This document shows positions 8,089 through 41,007 of a stretch of 64,000 nt of DNA, piece after piece. The translations under genes were made by a program, and so were the position numbers. The first letter of the stretch is position 1, and every line of letters begins with the position of its first letter. Under the pieces are notes generated by a model, which was not told the DNA's origin, made no database searches, and saw nothing but the letters and a program-made list of their open reading frames with translations. Origin of the DNA: Tetradesmus obliquus (lineage: Eukaryota; Chlorophyta; Chlorophyceae; Sphaeropleales; Scenedesmaceae); the NCBI GenBank assembly GCA_030272155.1, contig CP126206.1, positions 310,001 through 374,000 on the forward strand, read 5' to 3'.

Positions 8089-8120
<32 letters not shown>

Positions 8121-9190
8121 TTGTGCTGCTGGCTGTGGTGCTGACTGCTGTTGCTGTTGTCCTGTCTGCTGGCTGTGGTGCTGCGGCTGCAATTCGCCCT
8201 CTGCAAACTTGATGAGGCGCTGATTAAGGACGCTGGTGTAGAATTTGTAAAGCACGCTGAGCAAGGCGATGCCACGGTAGTTTGTAGGATCTGTAAGGTC
8301 TCCCTTCTTTGGCATGTTCACAATTGTGCCGGGCACCTGATGTACCTGCTCCAGCTGCCACATAAGGCTGCAGTACTGCAGCAGCATATCAGCAACTGTG
8401 CTGCCTCCGTACTTCAGGAGCTCGTTGACGATGCCCTCCTCCGCCGGGTTGCCAGCTTTGCTTGTGCGCAGGCGGTGCAGGCAGTCATGAACCTCATCAG
8501 CAGTGATGGCAGAGTCCAAGGGGCAGGGGGCAGAGGAATGAGAGTCACTCAAGCACTGCTGTACACTGGCAGTTACTTGAGATGCATATGCAGCGTCAAA
8601 TTGGGGGTTAGATGACGCAAATGCTGCATGGCTGCCGACACGCTGGTAATGACACTTGAACGCATCTGCCTTTTCTGCCGGAGTGGAAGCCACATGTCCT
8701 GAGGGGTGCTGAATGACACTAAACACAGCATCGCTGACATGCTTGGGGCACAGGCGGCGTATAAGCTGCCACATGTCCTTTTCACCCAGCACGCTGTCAT
8801 CAGTCATGCGAGCATTGTAAGCTGAAGTTACAGCATGCTCGCATTGCTGCTTGTGCTGTTTCTTGGCTGCTTTAATCAGCTGTGCTGCCGCTTTGCGCTG
8901 CTGTTGATACGCTGCCCAATCTGCCACAAGCCCTGTCGTCCTGTGCTGCTCGAAGGCCTGGACCCTGGCTTGCACCGCGTTTGTCAGCTGCTGGGACCAC
9001 CATGGGAAGGACTTGCCCACCAAAACCTGCTTATAACCAAAGCTGGCATTCACTGCATGGCGGATCGCTGCAAGCAGTTGCTCGTGTGCTTGCTGGACTG
9101 CTGCTGTGGCTGTCAGCTGTGTTGCAGCTGATGGTAGCTGTGTAGACGTTCCCAAGCTGCGATAGAGCTGCCTGATATGCTTCAAGTTCG
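6234..9190 (-). CDS. LINE ORF2, reverse transcriptase part
   Basis: This frame follows the endonuclease frame after a one-base shift near 9150. Motifs in order: '[13 protein letters not shown]' (entry to the RT region), '[19 protein letters not shown]' (fingers), '[12 protein letters not shown]', motif A '[14 protein letters not shown]' with its catalytic Asp, '[20 protein letters not shown]' (motif B), and motif C 'MHADDFVAV' with both catalytic Asp (7563-7586). Near the C terminus is a C-x2-C-x8-H-x4-C zinc knuckle ('[18 protein letters not shown]'). Odd feature: a run of about 14 Gln, set in a larger Gln-rich insertion, sits between the fingers motifs and 'GFRPKRS', encoded by the CTG run at 8083-8127. 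The enzyme primes on nicked target DNA. The stop codon lies about 20 nt from the 3' end. Confidence 0.9.
8083..8127 (-). repeat. CAG/CTG run coding poly-Gln inside the LINE RT
   Basis: Interrupted CTG/TTG trinucleotides on the plus strand give a poly-Gln tract in the fingers region of the RT, a place that is normally ordered and length-constrained. Confidence 0.9.
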
Positions 9191-10260
9191 GCTGACTGCT
9201 CCCCATTCTGCAACCTAAAGTCCTTGGGCTGCGCATTGAGTCGCAGCACAACCTGTTTTGCAGGGCGGCGCGGCATGCGTCTGTTGAAACGGGCAAACAC
9301 AGGCAGGTGGTCAGTGGCAGCAACAGTGCGGGGCCCAACCCGTGCAGTTGGGCGAGCAGCAAATTGGCAGGGCAGAGCGATGTCAGACGAAGCAATGATG
9401 TAATCGATGAGGGAGCAACCGTTCGACCTGATAAGGGTGAGATGTTGGCGGGGGCAGGCAGGTGGTGAGCGAGCATTGAGTGCGTACATGTTGAGGCTAT
9501 CAAGCAGTGAGAGCAGCAAAGGGCCGTTACTGTTAGTACCCGCTTCCCCGTACATGCCAAAGCGCGCCGAGGGCGAGGCCGCCCTCCCGATCCTAGCATT
9601 GAAGTCCCCCATAACTATTAGTGGGCCATTTCTGGACAGGAATGCAAGGTCTTCTTGCAGTGCCGTGTAGGCAGCCCTCTTCAACGCCGCCGGCTTGCCT
9701 TCATCAGGCATATACACTACCCCGATGAACAGCTTGCGGGCACCACGCTGCGCTGGCATGACGAGCCACAGCGCCTCCTCATACTGCTGTTCTGCAAATG
9801 TAAACAGTTTCACTGAGTTAGCAACAGAAGCGCACACAGCAACTCCCACACCCCCACCCAGCTGCCCTCCCCCCCTGGCCTTACTGATGTACGTGTATCT
9901 GGGCAGCAGATCAGCAGGAAGCCGCCCGCCCGTGGTCTCCTTTGTTTCCACAAATCCCATGATGTCGCAGCATTGATCCTTCAACAAAAGGCTCATTTCC
10001 GCCAGTTTCTGGCCCTCCCTTGGCATGCCATTCACGTTCAAGACGCCACAAACCAATGTGCTACCACCAGGCTGCACTGGTGCCCTGATCGGGCGCCTGC
10101 GCTGACGCGTAGCTGCTGCCCTGTTGCCGGCTATGCGCTGGCTGTGCCTGTTCTCCTGCTGCTGGCTTGGTACATATGTATACAGGGGGCCTACAGACTG
10201 CTGGTCCTGGTCCTCATCGTCTGATGCAGGGACCAGCTCTTCCTCTTCATCCGTTGGCAC
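9031..10260 (-). CDS. LINE ORF2, APE-like endonuclease part
   Basis: Starts in an acidic, Glu/Asp-rich stretch and then shows an exonuclease-endonuclease-phosphatase fold: 'GVLNVNGM', 'FVETKETTGGRLP', 'GGGVGVAVCASV', 'VMGDFNARIG', 'SLIDYIIASSDIALP' and 'AATDHLPVFARF'. These cover the catalytic Asp, Asn and His residues of LINE endonucleases, which nick target DNA to prime reverse transcription. Homology to the next part of ORF2 leaves this frame near 9150 and continues in the RT frame, a shift equivalent to skipping one base. This is either a +1 frameshift used in translation, a disabling mutation or a sequence error. The frame stays open for another 40 codons, which I regard as out-of-frame read-through. 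Confidence 0.85.
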   Translation of the reverse strand: MPTDEEEELVPASDDEDQDQQSVGPLYTYVPSQQQENRHSQRIAGNRAAATRQRRRPIRAPVQPGGSTLVCGVLNVNGMPREGQKLAEMSLLLKDQCCDIMGFVETKETTGGRLPADLLPRYTYISKARGGGQLGGGVGVAVCASVANSVKLFTFAEQQYEEALWLVMPAQRGARKLFIGVVYMPDEGKPAALKRAAYTALQEDLAFLSRNGPLIVMGDFNARIGRAASPSARFGMYGEAGTNSNGPLLLSLLDSLNMYALNARSPPACPRQHLTLIRSNGCSLIDYIIASSDIALPCQFAARPTARVGPRTVAATDHLPVFARFNRRMPRRPAKQVVLRLNAQPKDFRLQNGEQSAELEAYQAALSQLGNVYTATISCNTADSHSSSPASTRATACSDPPCSECQLWL

Positions 10261-20137: not shown

Positions 20138-21532
20138 CTACACTGCTGAGCAGCATGAAATCCTGCTGCCAACTGCAGCACATATTGACAGCTCTGCACT
20201 GCTGTCAATGCAAGGCACAGCCACTGCTGTGCTCACCTGTGCCTCCTTGGGGCAGTTGCGCTTGATGTGCCCCTGCTCGCCGCAGCCGTAGCAGGTCACT
20301 GGCTCACGCTTGCCGGTGAACTTGGGCTTGGGCTGGAACTTACCCTTGCCGTGCTGTGGCTTCTGCACGCCGCCAGCTGGTTTGAAGGGCTGGCGCGGAG
20401 GGAAGCCACGTTGCTGGCTTCGGCGGTCGCGGGAGTTGAAACCATTGCCGCCGCCGCCGTTGCTGGACTGGCGCGCTGCTGCGCGAGCAGTCTGCTGGTC
20501 AAAAGGCACTGCGTGATTGACCACGTTAGCACGGAAGTCAGCATAGAGCAGCCATGGTTTCATGTCAGCTGTGTATGCAATCAGATCCTTCAGCTTTGCA
20601 TGCACTGCTCTGTGCACCAAGCAGATCTTGAGGAAGTCACTCACTGGCTGCTGCATGCGGGCCCAGATGGCCTCTAGCTTTGCTACGGTGCCCATAGTGT
20701 CTGGCTTCTGCACATCAGAGTGCACACTGAGGCATTCATAGAAAAGCTGCAAGTCAGTGTCCTGCCGGCCAGCTAGCGCTGACCCCAGCACCCCGTTGCT
20801 GAAGTCCTCCCAGGTGTAGCTGCCATCCATCAGCTGCTCAGGCTCGCTGAAGTCTTTCAGCTGCGGGAACACCATGGCCCTGGCATCTGCGCTGAGGCAG
20901 CAGAACACTGCAATGGCAAACAACTGGTGCAGTGGCACTCCCTGTAGCAGCAGCCAGAGCCTGCTAGCTGCCAGCCAGCTGATCATGTCCTTGGGGTTGT
21001 CCTTGGCCTTGTCCCCTGCGTGCAGCTGGCCGTTAGGCGATGTCTTGCCGAGTATCTTGGCTGCTGCGAAGGCCTTGTCAAACGCTGCGTTGCTGCTGGC
21101 CGTTCTAGCCTTAGCTGTTGCCTTGCCTGCGTCAGACAGGAGAGACTTAATAAAGTTCTTAGCATTCTCCTTGTTGTCGCTCCACATGCTCTCGAATAGC
21201 TCGCGTGACACGCCACAGTCAGTTGGCGCGGCACGGAACCAAACGAGCATGTTGGCTGTTTCTGCTGCAGAAAGCGGTGGCAGAAATTCCACATCATTAT
21301 CGAGGCGCATGCCAGCTGCTGCAGCTGCAAGGCCGTCTACCTCGGCTCCGGCTAGCTCGGCTACCACTGCAACTGCAGCTGCTGCTGCGTCCATCTGCTC
21401 CTGATCCTGCTCATCATGCACCATTGCATTTAAATCAGCCGGTTCAGCCATTGCTGAAGTGGACTGGACCGTGACAGGTCTCGGCCACCACTGTAACGAC
21501 TGAGGAAGCGTAGGGAAGCGTATAGAAGACAA
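20138..21532 (-). CDS. Gag polyprotein with CCHC zinc knuckle (retroelement)
   Basis: 464 codons. An acidic, Ala-rich N terminus leads into a capsid-like helical region ('MISWLAASRLWLLLQGVPLH', 'VSDFLKICLVHRAVHAKLKD'), then a basic Gly/Arg/Gln-rich linker and one zinc knuckle 'CYGCGEQGHIKRNC' (C-x2-C-x4-H-x4-C). The fold and order are those of gypsy/copia Gag, which packages the element RNA. The real start may be the internal Met of 'MAEPADLNAMV' rather than the first Met. Homology is to families, not to a named element. Confidence 0.8.
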   Translation of the reverse strand: MSSIRFPTLPQSLQWWPRPVTVQSTSAMAEPADLNAMVHDEQDQEQMDAAAAAVAVVAELAGAEVDGLAAAAAGMRLDNDVEFLPPLSAAETANMLVWFRAAPTDCGVSRELFESMWSDNKENAKNFIKSLLSDAGKATAKARTASSNAAFDKAFAAAKILGKTSPNGQLHAGDKAKDNPKDMISWLAASRLWLLLQGVPLHQLFAIAVFCCLSADARAMVFPQLKDFSEPEQLMDGSYTWEDFSNGVLGSALAGRQDTDLQLFYECLSVHSDVQKPDTMGTVAKLEAIWARMQQPVSDFLKICLVHRAVHAKLKDLIAYTADMKPWLLYADFRANVVNHAVPFDQQTARAAARQSSNGGGGNGFNSRDRRSQQRGFPPRQPFKPAGGVQKPQHGKGKFQPKPKFTGKREPVTCYGCGEQGHIKRNCPKEAQVSTAVAVPCIDSSAELSICAAVGSRISCCSAV

Positions 21533-21703: not shown

Positions 21704-23862
21704 TTATACTGTGCCGTTACATGCTGCTGCTGACACGAGCTGGCCGTTGTCGCCAAAGAAGTCACACATGACTGCTCCCAGCACTAAGCCCGGGAACACT
21801 TGCGGATCAAATGCTATGCCCAGCTGCTTGAAGGCCTCGCGTATGGGGTCTGCATCTGCACTGCCCGCCAGCTGCATCACCTGTCGCAGCTGCATCACAA
21901 TCGGTGTTGTCATCACGCTGTGCTTCAGCCTGCTCAGAGGGTCGGCAGAAGCGCCAACTGCTGGCTGGGGTCTGCAGGAGCGCCGGCTCCTGCAGGTTGA
22001 TCATCCACGCCTGGCACCACTGCCTCGGCGCCGCGCGGCTTGATAGCTGTACGCCGCGCGCCAGGCTTGGCCGTAGCAAGCAGCAGATCAGGGCCACCAA
22101 GGCCCCTGTCAATGCTGCTGCCCGACCCTTGCTGTTGCTGCTGCTGTGGCTGCTGCCGGAGGCAGCAGCGTCGCAGCCTTCCAAACCCCCAATTGCCCCG
22201 CCCGCTGCTGCAGCGCTGCTGCTGCCCTAAATGTCAGGTAACGCCGCCCAGCTAACCTGGCGGCTGCTGCCAGAGGCAGCAGCGCCGCCTTGCGGGCTGC
22301 TGTTGCCCAGGGGCGTGGATGCCCCCAAACTGATGTACCTGCCACTACTGCTGCTGCTGCTGCTGACCCTGTCGACGTGCGGAGCGCACGCCAGGAAGTC
22401 GCCGAAGGTCGAGTTGCTGATGGCTGATTTGGCGATCCCTGAGCGGGCCAGGAAAATGCTCTTGCTGCCTGGCGGCTGCACACGCATGGCGCCCATGAAC
22501 GCGCCGGGCGGCCCGAAGTCCAGCCCAGGCTGCTGCTGGTGCCACTGGCGCTGATCCAGGTCAAAAGCCCCGCCACGGCCGCCACGCTGCTGTTGCTCGC
22601 GCCCGCGGCCGCCCTGCTGCTGCTCCCGGCCACCCTGCTGGCGCGCCCCGCCCAGAGCCCCGCCTGCAGCGCCAATGTAGGAACGCTGCTGCGGCGGCGG
22701 CGGCTGCTGCTGCTGCTGCTGCTGCCTCGGTGCGGCCTGCAGCTGCTGCTGCGGCTTCTGCACCGGCGGCTTCAGCTGGCCAGTCTGCGCGTCATGGCTG
22801 CGGCATATTGCCTGCAGCATGTTGAAGCAAACAGCTGCGTCATTGCCCTTCTGCACTGCTGTGGTCGCCTTGTTCTGTAGCTGCTGCTTGAGGATCATGA
22901 CCATAGGGTCGCTGCCAAAGTATGTGAACACCCGCTCCAGCTCCTCCAGCGGATGCGGCAGCGGCATCCTGAAGTCGCCATGTAGCTTGATCCGCTGCAG
23001 GAACGACGCTGCCGGCTCCGTCTTTGGGTTCCAGCCTACTGCTGAAAGCCTGGACAGAGCAATCAGCAGGTCCGCTGGCTTGCTGGGGTTAGCTGCCTCA
23101 AGGCTGCGCAGGAACGCCTCCACATCCGTGCCGTGGGCCAGCTCCGGCCCAAAGCTCTACCGCATCTTGGCAGACACCTTGCTCCTGACCATGCCAATGA
23201 CACGGGAGCTGCGTACCAGGGGCACACAGTCATCTACGCTGGCCAGGGCTGTGCGCACTGACCCTGTCCACGCTCATGGTCGGCACAAACTCTATGACTG
23301 GCTTGAGCGCTGCCTCAATCTCGTTCTGCGCTGCCTTGACCTCTGCCAGAAACAGCCTGTTGCTGCGGCGCGGGCTGCGCTGCTTCTTGCCACTGCTCCT
23401 GCTGCGGTAGGGCAGTGGCTGCTCGGCCACACTGCCCCGCCTGTGACTGCTGTTCCCGCCTCTGCCGCTGCTTGAACTGCTGCTGCCACCACTGGCAGCA
23501 TAGTAAGGCCTCTCCTGCTGCTGCTGCCCTACAGGCACAGCCACTGCTGCTGCTGCTGCTGGAAGGCCTGAGTTCATCAGCTGCGCAGCAACGCCGTTAG
23601 CGAGCTGCTGCTGTGACAGCTGTAGAGCGCTGACCATAGCGACGCGCGCCTGCGCCAGGTCCCTGAACTCCACGATGAGAAACCGCACGGCCTCCTCAGC
23701 AGTGCTGTCGCTACTCAGCTCGCTGCGAAACCTGTCTACATTGACCCCAAGATCGATCAAATCGTTAAGAAACTTGAAGTATAGCGGGTCCCGCAAGCAA
23801 GCGGGCACCTCGGTAAGCGCAAGCTGGGGCATGGCCATCCTACACAAGAGCTGTTCCCTCAA
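21704..23862 (-). pseudogene. Second decayed Gag-like region
   Basis: Open blocks on the minus strand at 23862-23230, 23123-22227 and 21916-21704 appear to be one broken polyprotein. After 'KPVIEFVPTMSVD' a frame change leads to 'VPLVRSSRVIGMVRSKVSAK', then a TAG, then 'GPELAHGTDVEAFLRSLE'. Middle parts are helical ('ADLLIALSRLSAVGWNPKTE', 'FLQRIKLHGDFRMPLPHPLE') and then Gln/Arg/Gly-rich ('GGREQQQGGRGREQQ'), like Gag nucleic-acid-binding tails, but with no zinc knuckle. It starts exactly where the 304-bp repeat ends (23856-24159), so that repeat could be its LTR. Family uncertain. Confidence 0.5.
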
Positions 23863-24159
23863 TCTCCACCATAAAGATTAGCTTCCATGAAAGCACGGGG
23901 TGTTCAAGCTCGTAATCGCAGACGCGTGTGTAGGGGTTGGGTGTATCCAGATACTTTTCACATTTTCACACAAAGGCGGCCAGACTGAAGTCGACAAGGA
24001 CGTGCCCCAACAACCTTTTCTTTAATCCAACACCCAACAGTGTTTCACTGCGAGTGTGCTGGCTATAGGCAAGCACCGAGCATGGCATGTGTTACTCAGG
24101 GTTCTGCAACCACAGAGCAGTGCACAGCAACAGCAGAGCGCTGCAAATCACAGACTACA
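23856..24159 (-). repeat. 304-bp inverted repeat, left arm
   Basis: Matches 28145-28448 in reverse complement with about 7 mismatches in 304 bp and no gaps seen. On the minus strand it begins TGTAGTCTG and abuts the start of the Gag-like region, so it may be an LTR. Confidence 0.93.
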
Positions 24160-28144: not shown

Positions 28145-28448
28145 TGTAGTCTGTGATTTGCAGCGCTCTGCTGTTGCTGTGCACTGCTCTGTGGTTGCAG
28201 AACCCTGAGTCACACATGCCATGCTCGGTGCTTGCCTACAGCCAGCACACTCGCAGTGACACACTGTTGGGTGTTAGATTAAAGAAAAGGTTGTAGGGGC
28301 ACGTCCTTGTCGAATTCAGTCTGGCCGCCTTTGTGTGAAAAAGTGAAAAGTATCTGGATACACCCAACCCCTACACACGCGTCTGCGATTACGAGCTTGA
28401 ACACCCCGTGCTTTCATGGAAGCTAATCTTTATGGTGGAGATTGAGGG
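28145..28448 (+). repeat. 304-bp inverted repeat, right arm
   Basis: Reverse-complement partner of 23856-24159. It is followed at once by a second, partial copy of its own middle part (28453-28536). Confidence 0.93.
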
Positions 28449-28536: not shown

Positions 28537-30644
28537 CGAGTTTCTGCTGTTTTGAGTGGTGCTTGGTTACTGGCTCATGTGAGTGCGGATTGTTGCCACC
28601 GCTGTGCTGCATCTGCATGTCCCTGGTTGGTGTTGCTCTGTGCTTGTTTCGGGATTGTATGTGTTGGCACGCTTTGTTTGCATTGCCTGTCGGTTGTTTG
28701 GTGCTAGTGTTGGCTTGTGATGGCTTGCTTGTGCCTCAGTCTTCTCTTTTGGGAGGGGGTGAAGGTGTAGGCTACACACAGCGCTGACTGATAGACTTCA
28801 CTGAAGCTTTGTGGTGTGATCTACCACAGCCAGAGTAAGGATGGAAAGGTGTTGCAGCTTCTGTGTGTACGCCTGCTGTGATAAAAGAGTCAGCCTGAGG
28901 CACTGCGCTTCTAGGTTCAGCTGTTATAACAGTGTTATGCTGAGTCAGCGTAACAGTTACAGCTACAGGTTATGAAATGCCGTGAGTTGGCAGGTGTGAA
29001 GAAGAAAAAGGAAGTATGTTGCAACGCTGTCAAGCGTGTGCAGACCATGTGGCCGTCGAATGTCACAAGGTAACAAATCCAGTGCTACACATGATTATGC
29101 TGGATCAAATGCATATGAAAGTGAGGGTTTTATCTGAGTAACTGAGTATGTGGCTACTGTTTGCTCAGCGGCTGTAGCTGTTGTCCAACGGTGCGATGCA
29201 TCAACCGCCGGACCTCCACTTCCAGTCGCAGGCGGGCGAAGCCATGCATGTCACAAGCCATGCATGTCAACAAGTGTCTCTGGGCTGCATAATCTACAGT
29301 TCGCTGATAGAATGAAACACAGTGCGAAGCTGTATCCTTCGGATGTAGCAGCTGCTGGACAGTGGAATAAAGCAGGGGTGCTGCTGATGCTACAGTTGTA
29401 AGCAGCTTGCCGCGCAATTCCATTACTTGTGAAGTATCTTGTCGACTCATAGGTTTATGCTTGTTTATTAACGCCGTGAGTCCTGCCTAGTAAAGCCTGC
29501 AGCCTGGCACGGTCGTGTGTTGGTCTCAGTCGGGCTGCCCCGGTACAGCAAAAACAGCTACACAATATTTAATGATAGCCACATACCTGCTAAGGAAACA
29601 ACGGCCACCTGGATAGTGTGCTCGTAGCAAGGGGGTGCATTATTTAGCTTGTGCTTGGCTAGCCGGCACTGCTTTGAGATGCATGACAGTCAGTAACAAT
29701 CAATGCACTGAATACGTACAACGTGCTTTTTCTGTATGCAAACGTACGGCTTTCTTGAGTTTACGACGGTATCACTGCGCGTTAAGCCAAGTGTCGACGG
29801 CGCTTACTGCGCATTGAGATACTGCTTTCTGGATCGCTGGCAGCCACTTGCTTCAAACACTGGATTTAATTGAAATGTGAAATTCAAACATGAGATGCTA
29901 TGTTCGTACCGTACCCCGCTGAGAAAATAATGTCTTCCTCGGCCGCCGGGCTGCAGCACTGCTGCCGTGGACGGTCCACAGCCTGCATTGCAGCACTATT
30001 GTGACGGGATGAAGCTGTTACCATGCAGTGCTGGTAACGGCTGGTAACGGTAACGCGTGGCGGCGGTGGCAGACGGTAATGGGCAGTACCGGTAACGGTG
30101 CAGCGGCTGGCAACGGCCGGTAACGGCTGGTAACGGGCGGCGGTAGGCGGCACCTCCGGCAGCCGCCGCCGGCGGCACCATGGTGCATGTTTAAAGGAGG
30201 TACAGCGTGCATGCAGGTCAGACATTGCATGTAACCACAGTCGCCCAGACCACAACACCGACATGCCCCCAACGCAGCTGACACGACAATTACAACTAGC
30301 GCTCTAGCGCGAGCACCGCTAGCGCTGCCGGCACACTATGCCATGGTTTGCACCTGATCCCTGAGGCCGGTCACGGCCGGAAACGGGCGGTAGCAGTAAC
30401 GGTGGTAACAGCTTCATCCTGTCACTATTGCTGTTTTGGGAATGCATGTGTGAGCCTGCAGCACATTATGTTTTCGAGCTGCAATAGTGGTGATCGTGGG
30501 AGGGACATGTCATTTGAGGATGAGCACGTACAGTACAGGCTGCCAGTGGGCGGTCTAAGGTCTTGTTGACTCCCCTTAAATCCTGTCACACCCTTTCATC
30601 ATCATGTTATATGCAATGCGACGGCTTTGAATGGCTCCTATTTT
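28537..30644. other. Intergenic, no gene seen
   Basis: No domain is recognisable in any frame. A short-period tract of CGGTAACGG-like units occupies 30020-30150. A TCCTGTCACACCC sequence like the ends of the 15998-17332 segment lies near 30585. Confidence 0.4.
30020..30150. repeat. Degenerate GGTAACGG tandem tract
   Basis: Repeated variants of GCTGGTAACGG, CGGTAACGG and GGCAACGG on the plus strand, imperfect, about a dozen units, GC-rich. Confidence 0.75.
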
Positions 30645-31396
30645 AGAGAGTGGCAGAGAGAGTCTTGCATTTTTGCGTATCTGCAAATGTATTTCATCAT
30701 GTCGTCAGTCTTTGCTGGCTTTCACTGCCCCAGTCACTTGTTCTGGGGAAGCTCTGCACCGGCACTGCCAGCTGCTGCTGGAAGCTTCTGGTGGGCGCAT
30801 CTTGCATTCGTGCACGCAGGAGTTCGTGCATTACTGACCCGTCAATTTTCTTTCATAGCATATATATGTATATATGCTTACCGCTGATAATCAGATAGAG
30901 GAGGCAGACCGGAGACAGTCGCAGTGCGCAGTTTCTGAGGTCGAGTTACTCGGGCCTGCAACATTGCATCATGTATCATTCAACAAGGCACTGGGCTCAA
31001 GCGGCAACTCTGTTGCTGCAGCGCAACGACAGAGTGGGACCGGCATGCATTTCAGCGTCTCATGCTGGAGCTCCGCCCTTGCCTCACCCAGGTGGCCACC
31101 TTGCTGACACCACAGACGTCTGCTGATAATGGTAGAATGGCAGCACCTTGCGGTGTGCATCTGGCCAAATATGCTTAGCAGCAGCAATGGCTGCAAAACC
31201 CTGCGACTGTAAAACCAGCAGATCTCTGCTGCATTCAAACACTGACAGCAGCTGCTGCCAGGCAACAAGTGTGCTGCAGCCAGCATTTGACATGCAGAGA
31301 GCCAACTGTAAAACCAGTCACATATGCTGAAGGTAAAACCATAATCAATATTGTAAATACTCATAAACAGTATGTGGCATGTTGATTCCCATCAGG
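30645..31396 (-). repeat. Direct repeat, 3' copy
   Basis: Second copy of the 752-bp repeat, downstream of the RGG frame. Its TATA-like site is changed (CTATGAAAG) relative to the 5' copy. Confidence 0.97.
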
Positions 31397-31831
31397 TGCA
31401 GCAGCAGCAGTCTGCTACCGCTGCTGCTGCCCTTTCCTGCAAGCATTTAATGTAATTAGATTTGCTCTCCCTCTGCCCCTGGCCAGTGCATCTGGCCTGG
31501 AGAGAGAGAGAGGGAGAGAGAGGCCCACCGTCCACCCCTCCTGGCAACAAACCGGCGTGCAGTCAGGTGCTGCTGCCTCACACATACACTGCACTGTCAG
31601 TGCTCATGCATCATGTGTGAAGATCAGACAGCAGCCCCTGAGCCACCAGCAGGTAGGCCAGGAGTCTGCTGCTGATGCTGCACAGCTGTGCACATCATCT
31701 ATGATCAGATTCATGTTGCACCAGCCATCACATATCCGAAACAATCATTCACCACCGCCGACTGCACACAAAGCCATCATGTCACAGCAGCCCTTAGCCA
31801 GCCATGCATCAGCCAATCACACGCTTACAGC

Positions 31832-33766
31832 CTAGTATGGAGTGTACCTGCCGCTGCCCCTGCCACCATGGCCGTAGCCACTAAACCTGCCACGCTGGCC
31901 CGTGCTGTGGCGCCCGCGTGCCGCATCCCTGCCGCCCGTGTAGCGGCCCCTGTTGCTGTAGCCGCCCCTGTTGCTGTCGCTGCTGTAGCCACCCCTGTCA
32001 GCCCTGCTGCCGTCATTCCTGTAACGCCCCCTGCTGTAGCCCCTGCCTGTGCTGCCGCCCCTGTTGCTGGGCGTGCTCCACACGCTGAACTGCTGCTGCG
32101 GCGGCGTCTCCATCTCACCACCCTCATATGCTGCCTCTGTATCGCCACCGGCCGCTGCTGCTGTTCCCGCTGCCTCCACTCTCGCCAGAGCTGCATGTGC
32201 GTTTGCGAGCTGCTGTCGCAGTGCTGCCAGCTCGCTGCTGCTGATGCTGCTGCTAGCGCCCGCACTGCTGCCAGCACCCGCGCTGCTTCCCGCTCCTGTT
32301 GCTGCTGCTGCTGCTGCCAAGTTTGGTGTGGCCGGCAGCGCCCGGGCTGCAGCCCGCGCTGGCTGCTGCCCATATGTTGCAGCAGCCGCGCCGTGGCGGC
32401 CGCCAGCCTGCCGAGCAGCCGGTTCACCTGCCTGGTGGCCTGCTGCTGGCGTGCTGCCACCCTGCCTCAGCTTGGCCATGAGCACCTGCTTGGTTAGCTT
32501 GGGCTCAGTGATGAACTGCCGCTGCTGGGCTGAGTAGAAGTGCAGCTGTGGCTCCCTGGCTGCTGTGTTGCTCCAGAGCGTGCTGTAGTGCGAGAACGCG
32601 CTGTAGAAGTGCTGCGAGGGCTGGTGCGGCATCTGCACGTACATGGCCAGCTTGTTGGCGTACTCTGACATGTTCAGGCTGCAGGCATCGGACATGCCGT
32701 CGCACACACAGATGCTGCTTGTGTGCTCCAGCACTCCTGCTGCATTCTTGGCTGCGAGTGCCAGGCTGGACTTGTACAGCTTGTATTCAGTCTCTGGGTA
32801 CTCCTCTGGGTGCACAGAGTGGTTCTCAGGGCTGAACAGCACATAGCTGCCGCTCCAGTCATCCTGCTCATCAACGCCGCCTGTGCCGTACTTGTACACT
32901 GCTGGCACCACCTTGGTCTGGATCAGCATGTAGCGCAGCAGCATGGTCAGCAGCTCCTCCAAATCCTGTGCTGCCTGTGGGGGGCAGCCAGGCTTTGAAG
33001 AGAGCTTGCTGAACACCTGCTGGCGCTGCTGCTCAATGCTGCCTACTGCTGCTGGCATAGCCACCTTTGGGTGGTAGTACAGCATGTACAGCACAGCTGG
33101 CAGCGGGAACAGGTCCAGCCCGCTGAAGCTAGGGCCGTCACCTGTTGCCTGCTCCAGCTGCGCCTGCATCCAGGCCTCCTCTGGCAGCGCCACTGGCATT
33201 GCTGCGCTGGTCAGGCAGTTGCTGTGCCTGGGGATGTCATACCACATCACAACCCTGCCTGAGCCCAGCGCCTGCAGGTGTGGCTTGAGGCCGCTGAAGG
33301 CGTCACCCAGCCACTTCACTGCATCCTCGCACATGACCATGGCCTTGGTGCGTGTGTGGAGGCTGCCGCCCCTGAAGCCATAGGCGATGCCTGTGCGGGC
33401 GTGGAAGCCGCGCCGCTTCTCATTGCAGAGCGGCAGCACGCCCTCCACAGGAGGCAAGTAGAAGTGGTGCCGCGCCCCTGGCAAGTTGCCTACCCATGGC
33501 GTGCTGCCCTTGTCAATCACTGTCTGGAACACTGCATAGTCACCATCGTCATTGATATCAGTGCCCTGGCTGTCAGGGATGAAATTCTCAAATGACTGTG
33601 ACTCTGGTGTGTCAATGTTGACCAGGCTGTCGTAGAGCTCAGGAGCTGCGTCCAGCAGCTGCTGGAGGTTCTCTGCTGCTGGGTGCTGCTGCATTGCTGT
33701 TGTAACCAGGTGCTTGTGCTGCTGGGAGACTGCGGCTGGCTGAATCAACTGCGTTACTGCTGCCAT
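31832..33766 (-). CDS. RGG/RG-rich protein of the retroelement (Gag-like)
   Basis: 644 aa if it starts at the ATG at 33766 (33850 is the first in-frame ATG, but that start adds a Cys-rich lead of low quality). The first 480 residues look folded ('WVGNLPGARHHFYLPPVEG', 'AVLYMLYYHPKVAM', 'DDWSGSYVLFSPENHS', 'EYANKLAMYVQMP'). They are followed by Ala/Ser/Gly low complexity and a short helical segment ('SELAALRQQLANAHAAL'). The last 80 residues are Arg/Gly/Tyr-rich ('RGGYSNRGRYTGGR'), an RGG-type RNA-binding tail. The position overlapping the RT stop by 13 nt suggests coupled translation. I infer a nucleocapsid-like role. No known family recognised. Confidence 0.7.
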   Translation of the reverse strand: MAAVTQLIQPAAVSQQHKHLVTTAMQQHPAAENLQQLLDAAPELYDSLVNIDTPESQSFENFIPDSQGTDINDDGDYAVFQTVIDKGSTPWVGNLPGARHHFYLPPVEGVLPLCNEKRRGFHARTGIAYGFRGGSLHTRTKAMVMCEDAVKWLGDAFSGLKPHLQALGSGRVVMWYDIPRHSNCLTSAAMPVALPEEAWMQAQLEQATGDGPSFSGLDLFPLPAVLYMLYYHPKVAMPAAVGSIEQQRQQVFSKLSSKPGCPPQAAQDLEELLTMLLRYMLIQTKVVPAVYKYGTGGVDEQDDWSGSYVLFSPENHSVHPEEYPETEYKLYKSSLALAAKNAAGVLEHTSSICVCDGMSDACSLNMSEYANKLAMYVQMPHQPSQHFYSAFSHYSTLWSNTAAREPQLHFYSAQQRQFITEPKLTKQVLMAKLRQGGSTPAAGHQAGEPAARQAGGRHGAAAATYGQQPARAAARALPATPNLAAAAAATGAGSSAGAGSSAGASSSISSSELAALRQQLANAHAALARVEAAGTAAAAGGDTEAAYEGGEMETPPQQQFSVWSTPSNRGGSTGRGYSRGRYRNDGSRADRGGYSSDSNRGGYSNRGRYTGGRDAARGRHSTGQRGRFSGYGHGGRGSGRYTPY

Positions 33767-36048
33767 GATGGTGACCTGATGCGCAGCGCAGCAACAACAG
33801 CAGTCATTGTAAAAGCCTTGCCAGGTATGAAGTCGTTGTTGTGAGCCCATTCTTCCAGCAACGTCAGCAATCGTCGTTTGTTGAAACCCCGTGCACCCAT
33901 TTTTGTTATCACCGCTTCAATGTGCACAGCAGCGAGGCGAGCTGAGCTGCAGATTGCTGCAATCCTGCTCGCCTGCCCTAGGATCAGCTTGTAGCTGTTG
34001 CCCAGGGGCCGGTTGCTGTACAGAGTTATGTAGTTGATGGGTGTGATTGGCAGCTTGCATTGCTTGTCATATATTTCAATCTCGTAGGTGCCATCTGCCT
34101 GTATGTGGGTCAGCATGTCGAGGTACTGTGTGCTTTGTGTGCCACTGCCGTCTGCTGCTGCTGCTGCTGCTGCTGCTGTTACGTCATATGTTATGTCAAT
34201 GCCAACGCATGCCGGGTAGATCCAGCCAATGGATGAGCTGTCACCAGCCCCCACAGGCTGTTTCAGGAACCCTGCTAGTGTCGGCGCGTTGATAAAGCGC
34301 ATATCGTCCATGAGGCGAAAGCAGTACAGCCATTCTGTGCACAGCTGCCTGCGCACAGCATTGGATGCAGCCAGCCTGGACATGCGCATGACTGCCTTGC
34401 ATTCATACATCATGAAGTAAAGATTGCAGGCGTTAGGGCTGTAGTCAGCGCCCATGGGGATGCCCCTGGACTGTCTGAAGATCAGCCCTGCTGCTGTCAC
34501 GTATGCGTTATTGACGATTATGTTTAGTAAGGCAGTTGCAGCCTCAGCAGAAAGGTAGAAGATCTTCCCATTCGGGTGAATCTTCCTGCCACCTGCTGGT
34601 TGATGCTGCCAGCGCACGCTGTATGAGCCAGCGCTGCTGTCTCGTACCGCCAGTACCTGGGGTCTCCCCCGCTGCTCTGCTGTGTAGCTGAATGCCTTGC
34701 TTACTGCCCACTGTAGGGCAGCAGGCAAGCTGTCAGCCTGGTCATGGTCGATTTGTATGTTTTCAAAGCACTTTGTTATGTCAGCGCACATGTCTGTGTG
34801 GATAAGGTCAGGGAGGTTGATGGCGACGTTCTGTGCATTTGCTATCACGATGCACGTCTGTGTCGCCACCCCTACAAAGTCCTTTATCTTGCTGTTCAGC
34901 TGACCCAGGGCACCTGTTACTGCCTCCATGACACATGACGTTATCCCCTGAGTTATGCTGTTCAGGCCAGACAGTATAGATTCAGAGGTGTTGGTCAGGT
35001 ATCTGAAGTTGTTTTTGTGTGATTTGTACGCTATGCGCATTATGGGCAGGCTGTCTCCGCCCACTGCCTGTGGCAGCATGGGGTTAATTGACTGCAAAGC
35101 GCTGCTGAGCCTGTCTCGTAGCTCTGGCATGGTGCAGTTCATCTGCTCAAAGTCAGACGACGTCACCAGACGCAGCAGAACCAGCAGCTGTGCGTACTGT
35201 GGGCATATGAAGCATGGTGTGTTGCTTGCTTTGTCTACCTCACAGATGTGTAGCTGCTGCTGCAGTAGTTTTAGTTCTGTTTTGACGCTGCTGGAGAACT
35301 CGTCTGGCTGTGGTGCTGTTCGCTGCAGCTGGTGCAGGGTCCACGTCTCAGCCGACTGGCTGATAACGTCCCATGCATCCAGGGGCAGGTCAACGCCACA
35401 GGCTGCTGCTGTTGGTGCTAATATATCATCATAGAACTGCCAGGCAACCTCGCGGTTGCAGTCCACCATTTGCTGTCTGTCTGCTGCTGCTAAATGTATG
35501 TGGTTTAAACTGCATGCTAGCAGCTCCCTCAGTGGTGCAGACTGCACCACTGCGAGGTCTGTTGTGAGCACGTGTTTTGTACCGAAAGCCATGGGGCAGT
35601 GCTCCAGAATGCTGCCATCCATGATGGTAGTTTTGAAGCGTGCCTCAAGGCTAGCGCAGCTGCATGACATGGTGGCCAGCTGCTGTTCTAGGCTTTGTAT
35701 GTTTTGCTGCTGTGCCATTACTTGGCGTGCGTTGATGGCTGTTGGCTTTAGCTGCTGCTCATAGCTCCATGTGAGCTGGTATTCAGGCAGGGCGTTTAGC
35801 AGTACTGGTTGCAGTTGGGCTATGATCACCTCATGCAGCATCTGCATTGGGTGTGCATGCTCCAAACAGCGTGATATGTACCGCGCTTTGATTTTCACTG
35901 GCCTGCTGCTGGTGCGTTCAATTGCCACATAATTCCTGCCCAGAGCACTCACTTCAAGCGTACGCCTGTTCAGCTCCTGCTGCCCCTGCTGCTCCTCCTG
36001 CTCAACGCCATCCTCGCCAAGCTGCTGCAGATCCTCGTTGTTCGCCAT
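33754..36048 (-). CDS. Reverse transcriptase of unusual lineage
   Basis: 764 aa. The N-terminal third has Gln/Glu-rich and helical parts and 'GTKHVLTTDLAVVQSAPLRE'. RT motif A 'DITKCFENI' is near residue 423, motif B 'QSRGIPMGADYSPNACNLYF' near 528, and motif C 'FRLMDDMRFI' near 579, with Met before the two catalytic Asp. After the palm come 'GWIYPACVGIDI', 'YLDMLTHIQADGTYEIEIYD', 'SNRPLGNSYKLILGQASRI' and 'NKRRLLTLLEEW'. This tail resembles in outline Penelope-type RTs and an uncharacterised RT family I recall from cnidarians with a YDKR-type block. It lacks RNase H and any endonuclease I can see. A poly-Ala run coded by a GCA microsatellite (34144-34175) interrupts the region after motif C. 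It lies first in the element, before the RGG frame, the reverse of the usual Gag-Pol order. Confidence 0.85.
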   Translation of the reverse strand: MANNEDLQQLGEDGVEQEEQQGQQELNRRTLEVSALGRNYVAIERTSSRPVKIKARYISRCLEHAHPMQMLHEVIIAQLQPVLLNALPEYQLTWSYEQQLKPTAINARQVMAQQQNIQSLEQQLATMSCSCASLEARFKTTIMDGSILEHCPMAFGTKHVLTTDLAVVQSAPLRELLACSLNHIHLAAADRQQMVDCNREVAWQFYDDILAPTAAACGVDLPLDAWDVISQSAETWTLHQLQRTAPQPDEFSSSVKTELKLLQQQLHICEVDKASNTPCFICPQYAQLLVLLRLVTSSDFEQMNCTMPELRDRLSSALQSINPMLPQAVGGDSLPIMRIAYKSHKNNFRYLTNTSESILSGLNSITQGITSCVMEAVTGALGQLNSKIKDFVGVATQTCIVIANAQNVAINLPDLIHTDMCADITKCFENIQIDHDQADSLPAALQWAVSKAFSYTAEQRGRPQVLAVRDSSAGSYSVRWQHQPAGGRKIHPNGKIFYLSAEAATALLNIIVNNAYVTAAGLIFRQSRGIPMGADYSPNACNLYFMMYECKAVMRMSRLAASNAVRRQLCTEWLYCFRLMDDMRFINAPTLAGFLKQPVGAGDSSSIGWIYPACVGIDITYDVTAAAAAAAADGSGTQSTQYLDMLTHIQADGTYEIEIYDKQCKLPITPINYITLYSNRPLGNSYKLILGQASRIAAICSSARLAAVHIEAVITKMGARGFNKRRLLTLLEEWAHNNDFIPGKAFTMTAVVAALRIRSPSWQQ

Positions 36049-36518
36049 GCTGCGTGGCTGGTGTAGACGACAGTGCTCCTGAGGGGGCAGTCAGTTGATG
36101 CGGTGCAGTGCATCAGCTGGTTACTGGCAAGGCCGAAGCAAGTGGTGCCATACACATGCCCGCATACAGCTGAAGGTCAGCATAGTTCAAGAAACTGCGT
36201 GTTATAGCTGAGGGGCTGTCATAGGATCTGCCCTATCGGGCTTTACATCTGTCAAATGTGATATGCCAGAGGATCACAGCAGTCCTGCCAGCACTGCTGT
36301 GCTAGTGTTACATCTGCTGTAACAGCGCAGTACTGTAACCCCTGCAAGCCATTCTGGAGTTGTAATGAATGTATAAGGCTTTAAGCCAGCTCATTCCTTG
36401 ATCAATGCTTGTGGGATCCACAGTCATTGAAGGCAAGGCTAAGCTCAGTTCAAACCAGAGGCAAGCAAGACCGCACCTTCGCCAAGCGGCTTCCAGGCCT
36501 TCCTGCCTAACCCCGAAG

Positions 36519-37270
36519 AGAGAGTGGCAGAGAGAGTCTTGTATTTTTGCGTATCTGCAAATGTATTTCATCATGTCGTCCGTCTTTGCTGGCTTTCACT
36601 GCCCCAGTCACTTGTTCTGGGGAAGCTCTGCACCGGCACTGCCAGCTGCTGCTGGAAGCTTCTGGTGGGCGCATCTTGCATTCGTGCACGCAGGAGTTCG
36701 TGCATTACTGACCCGTCAATTTTCTTTTATAGCATATATATGTATATATGCTTACCGCTGATAATCAGATCGAGGAGGCAGACCGGAGACAGTCGCAGTG
36801 CGCAGTTTCTGAGGTCGAGTTACTCGGGCCTGCAACATTGCATCATGTATCATTCAACAAGGCACTGGGCTCAAGCGGCAACTCTGTTGCTGCAGCGCAA
36901 CGACAGAGTGGGACCGGCATGCATTTCAGCGTCTCATGCTGGAGCTCCGCCCTTGCCTCACCCAGGTGGCCACCTTGCTGACACCACAGACGTCTGCTGA
37001 TAATGGTAGAATGGCAGCACCTTGCGGTGTGCATCTGGCCAAATATGCTTAGCAGCAGCAATGGCTGCAAAACCCTGCGACTGTAAAACCAGCAGATCTC
37101 TGCTGCATTCAAACACTGACAGCAGCTGCTGCCAGGCAACAAGTGTGCTGCAGCCAGCATTTGACATGCAGAGAGCCAACTGTAAAACCAGTCACATATG
37201 CTGAAGGTAAAACCATAATCAATATTGTAAATACTCATAAACAGTATGTGGCATGTTGATTCCCATCAGG
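36519..37270 (-). repeat. Direct repeat, 5' copy
   Basis: First copy of the 752-bp repeat in sense order. It carries the TATA-like promoter site and a 131-codon frame (37238-36843) that is conserved in both copies and may be chance. Confidence 0.97.
36724..36731 (-). promoter_or_regulatory. TATA-box-like site in the 5' repeat
   Basis: TATAAAAG on the sense (minus) strand, next to a 20-bp near-palindrome of ATATATA type (36733-36752). It is about 680 bp upstream of the RT start. The 3' repeat has TATGAAAG instead, so only the 5' copy keeps the consensus. Confidence 0.5.
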
Positions 37271-40170
37271 CACTATGGCAAAAAGCATCCACAGAATGTC
37301 CTCAACTCATCCACAAGCACCCCACCATGCATCCACAAGACCATGTTGTGGATGGCTGTAAGTGACCGCCGACAAAACCTGCAGGTGTTCCTTTGAATCA
37401 ACAGTCCTGTGCATGCTATAGTTGAAAAATAAACAGTACATGTGTGCAGCGGCACCAGTACCCTGCAGAAGGCCCCCCTGAGCCAATTTGCCCTGCACCT
37501 AACTGGCAGGCCCTAAGGGTTAATGCACCAGCGATGCAGGTATTCCAATCATTTGCAAAAGTTTTATATAGCTACTTTGAAAACTGTCAGTGTTCCGTGG
37601 CCTTGTACTAGAAGCCTTCATGGCTGGCTCAGCACTTGATGTGTCATTGGCAGTGCTTGCTGCTAACACTGTATGACAACGGCTATGCAACAAAATATTT
37701 CATACCGTATGATTTGCAGGCAAAAGCATCAGTCGATCTCTGGTCACTTGTTCAAACATCGAGGTTTGAGACTTGACAGCCCACCCGGGGGTCCAGGACC
37801 CCATGGCGAACGTAGCCGCCGTGAGGCAGAATCATAACGTACAACGTGTTTGAGGCCTTTATGACTGCGGCACTGCTACGCTTGCTTGCACGCCATGAAC
37901 GGCACTGCAGCCCACCTGCAGGGCTGCATTGCTCGCTGTGTTCGAAGTACTCACTTGAAGTAAACACGAAGAATGAACCGAATTTGTGAACTTGATGGCG
38001 CAAGGCAAGGTGTCAGCTCCGGATCAGCTAGATCAGCAGTGCTGCTGCGAAAGCAAGGACATCGCCCCTTGATCTGGCTGGGTTTGGGCAGATCATTGCC
38101 TTACGCCTTCCATGACAGATACTGCCAAATGCTGAGGTGCTAGCATCAGTACTTGCTGGTGCCGTTGTGATCACACAACCACTAGCTGATGGAGACAGCA
38201 GTTGCGCAGCAGCAGCGGGCATGCACAACAACAAAGGATGCCAAGGAGCACATGTGCAGAGGCCCATAGCCAGGACGCCGATTTGCCAGCGAATCACACT
38301 CACAGCAGCAGGCGACAGGTGAGCAAGCTGTGCCAAGGGGACGGGCAGGCTGGATCAACAATAGCAGGCTGTCACTTGCTTGTGTGCAGGGACACTCATC
38401 TTGATCCTGCTGGCATGCCAGCACAGTATGTGCAGTGCAAATAAGTGCAGCAACGAGGCTCAGCTGTTTGTAAAGGGGTGATAAACGGCAGCGCAAATGC
38501 ATCGGTCACTGTGCTGTGCAGCGTACTGCAGGTGCATCCGGGCGCCTGCATGTTACAATACATGTGTGTTGTGATGAGGTGCACCTCTGCACTTGTGGAC
38601 TCAGGACACGGTGGACATCTGCAGTACACAAGTGCACCTGTTAACATGGAGTTTGCACTGCGCTTTGATCCTTGCAGTGTTCTGCTGGTACCCTATCAAC
38701 AACTGCGGTGGTGCTACGCCGAATTGTGAGTGCTGTGACAAGTTCATGCATCAGCAGCATGCACAGCAGATGCACTAGCGTGATGCCAGGTTACAGAGAC
38801 AGGACTTGCCGCCACAGGCTCGGCAACAGCCACGAATCGGCAACAGCCACGAATGATGACAATGCACAGCAGCGGCACCGGGTGGCAGTGGCTGCAGAAT
38901 TGTGTGATGAATTTGCTTCAGAGCAGCAAGGTGGCCTCGGTGCAGCAGATACCCTGCATGCATGGGGCGTGGTAGCGGTAGTGACAGCAGCAGCAGCACC
39001 CGAAGCAGCAACATTGCATGTTGTGCATGTTGATGACTTGGGTTGCAGCACCCGGTGCTCTGCTAGCATGCAAGCAGCAGCAACACTGCAGGTTGCACAA
39101 CGCTCACCACATGTGTGGTTCTGCTGCAGATCTCTCCAGTGCATTCACAGTATCTGGGAAACAGCCAAGTGCGGCGCCATAATTGTGTGCTTCAGTCTGG
39201 TGCATTTGTCACAAGAGGTGCGTTCCAGGTGGAGCATGCCTGACACTGTCGATGGTTTGATACTATACAGCAGATAGCATGCATGCTCATTTAGTCTACG
39301 CACTCCGCATCATCAGCTGCAGCTGCCAGACCTAGCGCATGTTGTCCTTGGTCACATTATGGCAAGTGCCTTCAGGACTGAGAGCAGATGCAGCAACAGC
39401 AGCAGCAGCAGCAGCAGCAGCGGCAGGCTACATAGCCATAAGAGGTCTACACCACACCTTGCACGTATATGTTGGGCAGCAGCAGCTCTGCTGTAGCAGT
39501 GGCATGTAAAACTCCACAGCAGCCATGCGAGTAACTGCTTGGTTTGACAGCAGCAATGATGCTTGCCTGTGCTGCTCGCCGCTGCTGCAATTATTGTGCA
39601 GGCTGCCAACTTGCAAGCTATCTGCTGGTGTCGCGAGCAGGCGTTGAGGAATATCATCTCAGTCAGCAGCATATGCTAGCAGCAGGGTTGAACTTACACA
39701 GCAAGAGCGTCATTGTTGGTTGCAGGCGGTCTGCAGCTGACTGAGCATCACCATGTCACGTTGCCTGTGACAGGTCCTGTCACATAGCACATTGTGGGAT
39801 CGTTTGCCTATCTTTCATTGAGTTGTTGCCAGCAGCTTATGACACAGCGTTTTCAGCAGTTGTTTCAGCGAGCTTGTCAGCTGCTGCTGCTGCTGCTGCT
39901 GCACGCTGTGCTCGCGTACGGGCACAAGCTCGACCAAAAAGTGTTTACAACTGATATATTGTATCTGTAAACGTGTTTAAGCAGTGATTCGAGGCTCTTC
40001 TGCACAATCCACGACATGATCCACACGCGATCGAGGCTTATCCACAACGGTTGTGGACCGTTCCGGTTGTGGACGGCCTTGTGGACGGCCCTCGCCCGTT
40101 GTGGATGGCTTGTGGATGATCTGCTGCGGACGACTTGTGGACGACTTGTGGATCTGCTTTGACCATAGTG
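37271..40170. other. No gene recognised; two TTGTGGAT-rich patches
   Basis: Plus-strand frames between 38445 and 39277 are open but match nothing I know. CAG runs occur near 39388-39422 and CTG near 39883-39903. At 37271-37355 and 40010-40160 the DNA is crowded with TTGTGGAT/ATCCACAA words. Confidence 0.4.
40010..40160. repeat. Cluster of TTGTGGA(T/C) words
   Basis: Around ten copies of TTGTGGAC, TTGTGGAT, TTATCCACAA and GATCCACA in 150 bp, degenerate and in both orientations. A smaller set lies at 37283-37352 beside the 5' end of the retroelement. Confidence 0.8.
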
Positions 40171-40323
40171 AGGTGCAGCAGCAGCAGTCTGCTACCGCTG
40201 CTGCTGCCCTTTCCTGCAAGCATTTAATGTAATCAGATTTGCTCTCCCTCTGCCCCTGGCCAGTGCATCTGGCCTGGAGAGAGAGAGAGGGAGAGAGAGG
40301 GAGGCAGAGAGAGTCTTGTATTT
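40171..40323 (-). mobile_element. Short derivative of the 752-bp-repeat retroelement
   Basis: 40171-40300 matches 31394-31523 (the element's 3' non-coding end) with one substitution. It then joins, at a CTCTCT-rich stretch, to 21 bp (40303-40323) identical to the outer end of the 752-bp repeat (36526-36546). The full element does not have this junction, so this is an internally deleted or separately mobilised derivative. Confidence 0.85.
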
Positions 40324-40578
40324 CCATTGCCATCCATTGCCACAAAATCAGCAAGCAATTCCCAAAACCGCAACACCGCCTGCTGCTTCGCCTCCTGCAA
40401 CACCTGCGCTACTAGTTGCTGTCGCTGTTGTTGTTCATGCAGCTGCTGCTGCTGCTGACGCTGCTCAACCAGCTGGTTATGCTGTTGCTGCGCAGCAGTG
40501 AGAGCTGCAGGCTGAAACACATCAGTAAAAGGTACCTGCCATTGCGGCGGCGGCGCAGACGGCCGCTGCGCGGCAGGC

Positions 40579-41007
40579 GTGGGCGGCGGGATGCGCAGCT
40601 TGACTCGTGGTTTGCGCTATGTGGCGGCCGCCCAGGGCGTACTATGGAAGATGTGCTGGGATAATGCGTACAAGGAGACGTATTCGCGGCTGGTCATGGA
40701 TGGCTGGCCTACGTTGCAGCGCATGCACCAGCTGCATGACACCTGCATGTGTGGCGCTGCGTGTCCTGGTCTAATACACCATTTTTGGGAATGCCCGGTT
40801 GCAGTGGCAGTGATTAACAGCCTTCTGTCTGTGTTGCCTGCAACATGGTGCACGCGGGCTGCAGGCCGCCCGCCGCTTGCTATGCGGCATGTCTGGCTGA
40901 TGCAGCGGCCTGCTGGCCCTAAGCATCTCCACCAGGGTGTTTGGGGGGTTGTATGTTTAGCTGCTTTGAATGCCATGGATGTTGGCAGACGGCATGCTAG
41001 ACAGTAG
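40579..41007 (+). pseudogene. C-terminal end of a non-LTR retroelement polyprotein
   Basis: Reads 'LWKMCWDNAYKETYSRLVMD', a zinc motif 'CMCGAACPGLIHHFWECP' (C-x-C...H-H-x3-C), and 'GVWGVVCLAALNAMDVGRRH'. I associate this C-terminal knuckle pattern with algal retroelement RT proteins. No RT palm lies upstream, so this is a truncated relic. Orientation is opposite to the neighbouring 40171-40323 fragment. Confidence 0.6.

What the first reader, a model, noticed from the sequence alone, without database searches (positions are those of the whole stretch)
30645..37270. Young retroelement with non-canonical 752-bp direct repeats and an RT-first, RGG-second gene order
The repeats are equal in length with about 4 substitutions, yet they lack TG...CA ends. 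The body has only an RT of unusual lineage (motif C LMDD, a post-palm YLDM...IYDK...SNRP block) and an RGG-rich protein whose start overlaps the RT stop by 13 nt. No protease, RNase H, integrase, GIY-YIG or APE domain is visible. That set is not that of LTR, LINE or standard Penelope elements, and the Gag-like gene follows the RT. This is my best candidate for an undescribed element type.
Basis: partly seen in the sequence, partly recalled or inferred. Interest (0 to 1): 0.88.

Follow-up and report, generated by a model that had tools for sequence, protein, structure and literature searches.

The report
Endonuclease-less Penelope-related algal retroelement
In what looks like an alga, a recently active mobile element copies itself with an enzyme related to telomerase and Penelope elements, yet it carries no recognisable DNA-cutting gene, is framed by long repeats that behave like those of retroviruses, and mostly sits in CT-rich tracts, an unusual mix for this little-understood class.

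Summary
The retroelement is real, but its ends were misread. The right-hand repeat is split by a 2.9-kb CACTA-type transposon (37271-40170, 3-bp duplication AGG). The true direct repeat R is 879 bp (5 differences), and the element runs 30645-40300 on the minus strand. It encodes a 764-aa RT and, overlapping by 13 nt, a 644-aa RG-rich protein. The host genome (104.66 Mb, photosynthetic eukaryote) holds 2 full-length intact copies, 7 internally deleted bodies and 25 R copies at 13 loci. R pairs flanking a body differ by 0-5 nt; abutting R-R pairs differ by 27-35, so R is renewed at each insertion as an LTR would be. Eleven of 13 insertions abut CTCT. The RT is not of unknown lineage: profile comparison links it to a GIY-YIG-associated Penelope-type RT in the same genome (E 1.3e-10; LINE control fails), and its predicted fold is closest to telomerase. 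No endonuclease, RNase H, integrase or protease domain was found. Best reading: an endonuclease-less, Penelope-related retroelement with an added RG-rich protein, CT-tract sites away from contig ends and LTR-like repeats, i.e. a new variant of a known kind. Its place among Penelope clades could not be tested.

The parts
30645..31523 (-). downstream (3') copy of the 879-bp direct repeat R; ends ...CTCTCTGCCACTCTCT
31524..36518 (-). internal body X, 4995 bp
   Evidence: second copy on C1 aligns over the full 4995 bp at 98.6%
31832..33766 (-). second gene: 644-aa protein with RG-rich tail, start MAAV
   Evidence: homologues P0013-P0015 align from about this start
33754..36048 (-). first gene: 764-aa Penelope/telomerase-type reverse transcriptase
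36519..37270 (-). upstream (5') copy of R, part 1 (R positions 128-879)
37271..40170 (.). CACTA-type transposon inserted in the 5' R; not part of the retroelement
   Evidence: termini CACTATGG/CCATAGTG, TSD AGG at 37268-37270 and 40171-40173; four further genome copies span its whole length 1-2900 and one spans 1-2620
40174..40300 (-). upstream (5') copy of R, part 2 (R positions 1-127)
40303..40323 (-). 21-bp extra copy of the 3' end of R, upstream of the 5' R

Best explanation
This is a recently active endonuclease-less retroelement whose RT belongs to the Penelope/telomerase group. SHOWN: layout R-X-R with X = RT then RG-rich protein; two intact full-length copies; deletion derivatives that keep both R copies and both ends of X; R pairs renewed together at each insertion; junctions mostly at CT tracts; extra copies of the 3'-terminal CTCTCTGCCA-like motif at some 3' ends. 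INFERRED: the RG-rich protein coats or chaperones the RNA. The RT binds the RNA through a signal near the start of the RT gene, because every deletion derivative found keeps at least the first 111 codons. The CU-rich 3' end of the RNA pairs with a GA 3' end at a nick or break in a CT/GA tract, and that DNA end primes cDNA synthesis, sometimes reiterating the terminal motif. The cDNA then switches template within R or between its CT runs, so that a complete second R is made, and the 5' junction closes on CT microhomology in the target. Cleavage would come from host breaks or from an endonuclease supplied in trans.
Confidence: 0.6

Rival explanations
1. Ordinary Penelope-type pseudo-LTR formation: R copies arise because tandem or partial-tandem copies are transcribed through and copied from an internal start, with no LTR-like strand transfer.
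For: Penelope-like elements form tandem or partial-tandem repeats with pLTRs, tails and internal initiation (PMC11167929, abstract and passages; PMC3846280, passages). Here a tandem R-X'-R-X'-R exists on C15, the window copy has a 21-bp tail, and every derivative found keeps the start of the RT gene, as the PAc element needs the first 172 nt of its ORF.
Against: R has nearly the same two ends in 24 of 24 uninterrupted copies (R positions 1-6 to 879); 5'-truncated copies, which PMC3846280 describes for some Penelope families, were not found. 7 of 8 body-bearing loci hold one body, not an array.
Confidence: 0.4
2. The element lives as an R-X circle and enters the genome by recombination at R or CT tracts; solo R copies come from excision.
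For: Body-bearing loci have complete R copies on both sides, a tandem unit of 1978 bp occurs on C15, and 4 loci hold a single R.
Against: No recombinase domain was found in the element's proteins. Solo R copies C12 and C5 differ by at least 9 nt from every other R compared, so those two are not recent excision products of known copies.
Confidence: 0.12
3. DNA cleavage is supplied in trans by the GIY-YIG Penelope-type elements of the same genome (L055).
For: L055 carries a GIY-YIG-like frame directly upstream of its RT (Pfam PF01541 E 4.3e-4, 21.0 bits, just under the 22.6 cut-off).
Against: Shared ends between the two were not tested. In the rotifer A. vaga there was no sign that endonuclease-bearing Penelope elements mobilise endonuclease-deficient ones (PMC3846280).
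Confidence: 0.15
4. A degenerate LTR retrotransposon that has lost protease, RNase H and integrase.
For: LTR-like renewal of R.
Against: The RT is of Penelope/telomerase type. The second intact copy has the same two genes only. No TG...CA ends.
Confidence: 0.03

Closest known systems
Endonuclease-deficient Penelope-like elements (Athena, Coprina)
   Same: RT related to telomerase; no endonuclease domain (from PMC3846280 passages, and recall)
   Different: described as telomere-associated (PMC3846280), whereas the insertions here are internal to contigs and mostly at CT tracts; LTR-like complete R; RG-rich second gene. Their RTs were not available for comparison
Penelope-type elements with upstream GIY-YIG (Chlamys type; that label is recalled from Craig et al. 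2021, paper not held), here L055
   Same: same RT motif series (DK, K.HK, NIP, GIPMG, DD, LD, YDK, SN, GQ..R; alignment, reading mine), hhalign E 1.3e-10
   Different: L055 carries a GIY-YIG-like domain; 22-26% identity in the palm region; no RG-rich frame among those listed in the 4.5 kb fetched
Canonical Penelope/Poseidon elements
   Same: pLTR-like direct repeats, tandem copies, 'tail', probable RNA signal near the ORF start (PMC11167929, PMC3846280, passages)
   Different: no GIY-YIG match; no hammerhead ribozyme found; no 5' truncation and no inverted R found
LTR retrotransposons
   Same: paired long direct repeats renewed at each insertion; solo repeats
   Different: no protease, RNase H, integrase or TG...CA found; RT of a different lineage

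Membership tests
Penelope-like elements | RT of the Penelope/telomerase lineage | tested here: met
   hhalign to L055 E 1.3e-10, LINE control negative; telomerase tops both structure lists. A rooted tree with reference clades was not possible
Penelope-like elements | GIY-YIG endonuclease (canonical members) | tested here: not met
   no Pfam match in either protein; the second full copy has the same two genes. Endonuclease-deficient members are known
Penelope-like elements | pseudo-LTRs, tandem or partial-tandem copies, tail | tested here: met
   R-X-R, tandem on C15, 21-bp tail in the window copy
Penelope-like elements | hammerhead ribozyme motif in the pLTR | tested here: not met
   no hammerhead among Rfam hits at E up to 5 in 30000-41000; of 2 CTGANGA matches in the element one has no GAAA within 70 nt and the other has 6 nt between CTGACGA and GAAA, too few for stem II by my reading
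Penelope-like elements | 5'-truncated copies (seen in some families) | tested here: not met
   24 of 24 uninterrupted R copies nearly full length, 9 of 9 bodies found with the 5' probe and 9 with the 3' probe; lower-bound counts, three diverged partial R matches left out
Endonuclease-deficient PLEs (Athena/Coprina) | location at telomeres | tested here: not met
   13 of 13 loci lie at least 178 kb from a contig end; no telomere-like repeat noticed at the printed junctions. Contig ends were not checked for telomeres
Endonuclease-deficient PLEs (Athena/Coprina) | RT clade | not tested
LTR retrotransposons | protease, RNase H and integrase | tested here: not met
LTR retrotransposons | LTR pair renewed at each insertion | tested here: met
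   8 of 8 body-bearing loci
LTR retrotransposons | tRNA primer-binding site next to the 5' repeat | not tested
   no comparison with host tRNAs was made
LINE/non-LTR retrotransposons | LINE-type RT with APE or RLE endonuclease | tested here: not met
   hhalign to the window's own LINE RT probability 0.6; no endonuclease domain matched
DIRS/Ngaro (YR retrotransposons) | tyrosine recombinase | tested here: not met
   no Pfam match in either protein (at E up to 10, at E up to 1)
Telomerase RT | telomerase RNA-binding domain | tested here: inconclusive
   no Pfam match to the family, but several telomerase structural alignments start near model residue 97, ahead of the RT fingers; some RdRp alignments start there too

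The most novel reading that the evidence does not exclude
A distinct lineage at the base of, or beside, Penelope elements and telomerase that makes complete LTR-like repeats with a telomerase-type RT and no endonuclease: it primes on GA ends in CT tracts, reiterates a short terminal motif as telomerase does, and regenerates R by template switching between CT runs, with an RG-rich RNA-binding partner in place of Gag.
Probability: 0.25. Interest if true: 0.85.

Novelty: new variant of a known kind. Interest (0 to 1): 0.6.

Why it matters
Penelope elements are close mobile relatives of telomerase, and how they integrate is unsettled. An intact, recently active, endonuclease-less relative that sits in CT tracts away from contig ends, with LTR-like repeats and an RG-rich second protein, would give a testable case of endonuclease-independent priming and of how direct repeats can be renewed without the retroviral cycle. 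It would also extend the gene content known for this class.

Tried and rejected
Repeat end at 37270: rejected, it is the edge of a CACTA-type insert. The 131-aa frame inside R was considered as a gene and rejected: variable sites fall 9/8/11 over codon positions and 6 of 25 copies lack the full frame. A hammerhead ribozyme was rejected. The RG-rich protein's fold could not be judged: AlphaFold mean pLDDT 33 from 4 sequences, so no Gag comparison was made. Viral contigs, GTDB contigs and phages gave no relative of the RT; viral contigs gave none for L055 either. Pfam, PHROGs and NCBIfam gave no family for the window's RG-rich protein; its relative P0015 had weak PHROG hits (E 0.0073, function unknown; E 0.48, tail fibre), and for the RT the hits were phrog_1321 (unknown, E 0.0068) for the window protein and phrog_1423 (reverse transcriptase, E 0.015) for P0018: not used as evidence. 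A rooted RT tree failed for want of references; the small tree (LINE row of length 10) is not used as evidence. PDB sequence searches gave only chance hits or none. VIA: telomerase rows stand above others, but absence of other families from that list excludes nothing. The comparison with canonical Penelope RT motifs rests on recall; the labels CACTA, Chlamys, Athena and Coprina are recalled or taken from papers, not from a database hit. Papers: PMC11167929 (outline, abstract and passages), PMC3846280, PMC10941475 and PMC7046594 (passages) were seen; others only as search listings. None of the listings of those eight searches showed a description of this element, but most subscription papers are not held.

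Full report
What is there. The element lies on the minus strand. Just beyond the right copy the sequence reads CACTATGG..., and at 40170 it ends ...CCATAGTG, with AGG on both sides. The remaining part of the repeat resumes at 40174 and runs to 40300. Laid side by side, the repeat is 879 bp with 5 differences. The 2.9-kb insert has four other genome copies that span its whole length and one that spans 1-2620, so it is a transposon that landed in the repeat later. The retroelement without it is 6753 bp: R (879), X (4995), R (879).

Genes. X encodes a 764-aa RT (33754-36048) and a 644-aa protein (31832-33766); the two overlap by 13 nt (ATGGCAGCAGTAA). Both are conserved: RT relatives P0001-P0012 share 47-61% identity and second-gene relatives P0013-P0015 share 38-74%; each search scored only about 8000 best candidates. 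P0013, P0019 and P0022 come from contigs of the same length, 20689 bp, so RT and RG-rich genes are probably linked there too; their order was not seen. Pfam finds no RT domain in the window RT, and 1 of 13 sequences hits RVT_1, at E 0.17. The aspartates of motifs A and C are invariant in 13 of 13.

Copies. The genome (104.66 Mb, 17 contigs) is that of a photosynthetic eukaryote, judging from exon-split PsbO matches and TERT matches; 'alga' is my inference. It holds 25 copies of R (24 uninterrupted, plus the split one) at 13 loci, 9 bodies at 8 of those loci, and among these 2 full-length bodies with both genes open, 98.6% alike over X. Three bodies share one deletion (X'', RT codons 1-254 joined at the DNA level to the RG-rich tail) and four share another (X', RT codons 1-111), so the deleted forms were amplified. 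Four loci are single R copies (C17, C12, C5, C11), C15:4.09 Mb is R-R, C13:4.84 Mb is R-R-X''-R-R, and C15:3.44 Mb is R-X'-R-X'-R. Counts from this tool are lower bounds. Three further, diverged partial matches to R on C6 (81-88%) were left out of all counts.

R behaves like an LTR. At 8 of 8 body-bearing loci the flanking R copies differ by 5, 1, 0, 0, 0, 3, 1 and 4 of about 878 nt, while three abutting R-R pairs differ by 35, 27 and 34. R pairs are thus made together at each insertion (or homogenised soon after, which I cannot exclude). No 5'-truncated copy was found among the counted copies. That is unlike some Penelope families, although pLTRs, tandems and tails are Penelope features (PMC3846280, PMC11167929; passages).

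Target. In 11 of 13 insertions CTCT directly abuts R on at least one side; the exceptions are the window copy and the C12 solo. In the flanks further out 283 of 36,192 positions (0.8%) would meet that test. Two insertions sit in the same CT tract of a dispersed repeat: their 5' flanks are 97.5% alike over 1042 bp while their R copies are identical, which suggests independent insertions. An unoccupied copy of that repeat, L061, has the tract GTGTAACCCCTCTCTCTCTTAACC. Because R begins and ends in CT runs, some abutting CT may be the element's own, and the exact junction and any target duplication cannot be read. In 3 of 13 insertions the 3' end carries extra copies of the terminal CTCTCTGCCA-like motif, and the window copy has 21 bp of the 3' end of R ahead of its 5' R.

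Mechanism. These facts fit priming of cDNA synthesis by a GA-ended DNA strand paired to the CU-rich RNA end, slippage on that end, and a template switch that completes the second R; the RG-rich protein is the probable RNA-binding partner. All of this is inference. The Penelope element PAc needs the first 172 nt of its ORF for activity in vitro (PMC11167929), and all 7 deletion derivatives here keep at least the first 333 nt of the RT gene, which suggests a similar signal. No ribozyme was found.

Verdict. The element is a new variant of a known kind: endonuclease-less, Penelope-related, with LTR-like repeats, CT-tract sites and an RG-rich second gene. Eight literature searches listed no description of it, but most subscription papers are not held.

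Noticed in passing
window 37271-40170: CACTA-type transposon with subterminal TGTGGA repeats and no frame of 250 aa or more listed; four other whole-length copies and one near-complete copy, plus many matches to its last 290 bp or so, in the genome
   Followed up: partly
window 6234-10260 (-): LINE with RT and APE endonuclease in two overlapping frames
   Followed up: no
window 20138-21532 (-): Gag-like frame with CCHC zinc knuckle, probably an LTR-element remnant
   Followed up: no
L055 1-3184: Penelope-type element with GIY-YIG-like frame upstream of the RT, interrupted by a stop codon; the RT has 34 matching stretches in the genome, two of them the element reported here
   Followed up: partly
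L062-L064: second, broken Penelope-type RT family; L062 piece 31% identical to L055
   Followed up: partly
G000 C6:6070232-6072171 and C6:5961150: diverged stretches 81-88% alike to parts of R (R 246-309 and 309-509 are 1.7 kb apart there), perhaps an old relative or a host source of part of R
   Followed up: no
L016 1201-1500 and L061: dispersed repeat, 54 matching stretches, many lacking their 5' part but reaching the same 3' end beside a CT tract: possibly another retroelement at CT tracts
   Followed up: partly
window 23856-24159 and 28145-28448: 304-bp inverted repeat pair, 97.7% alike, with a further 81-bp copy
   Followed up: no
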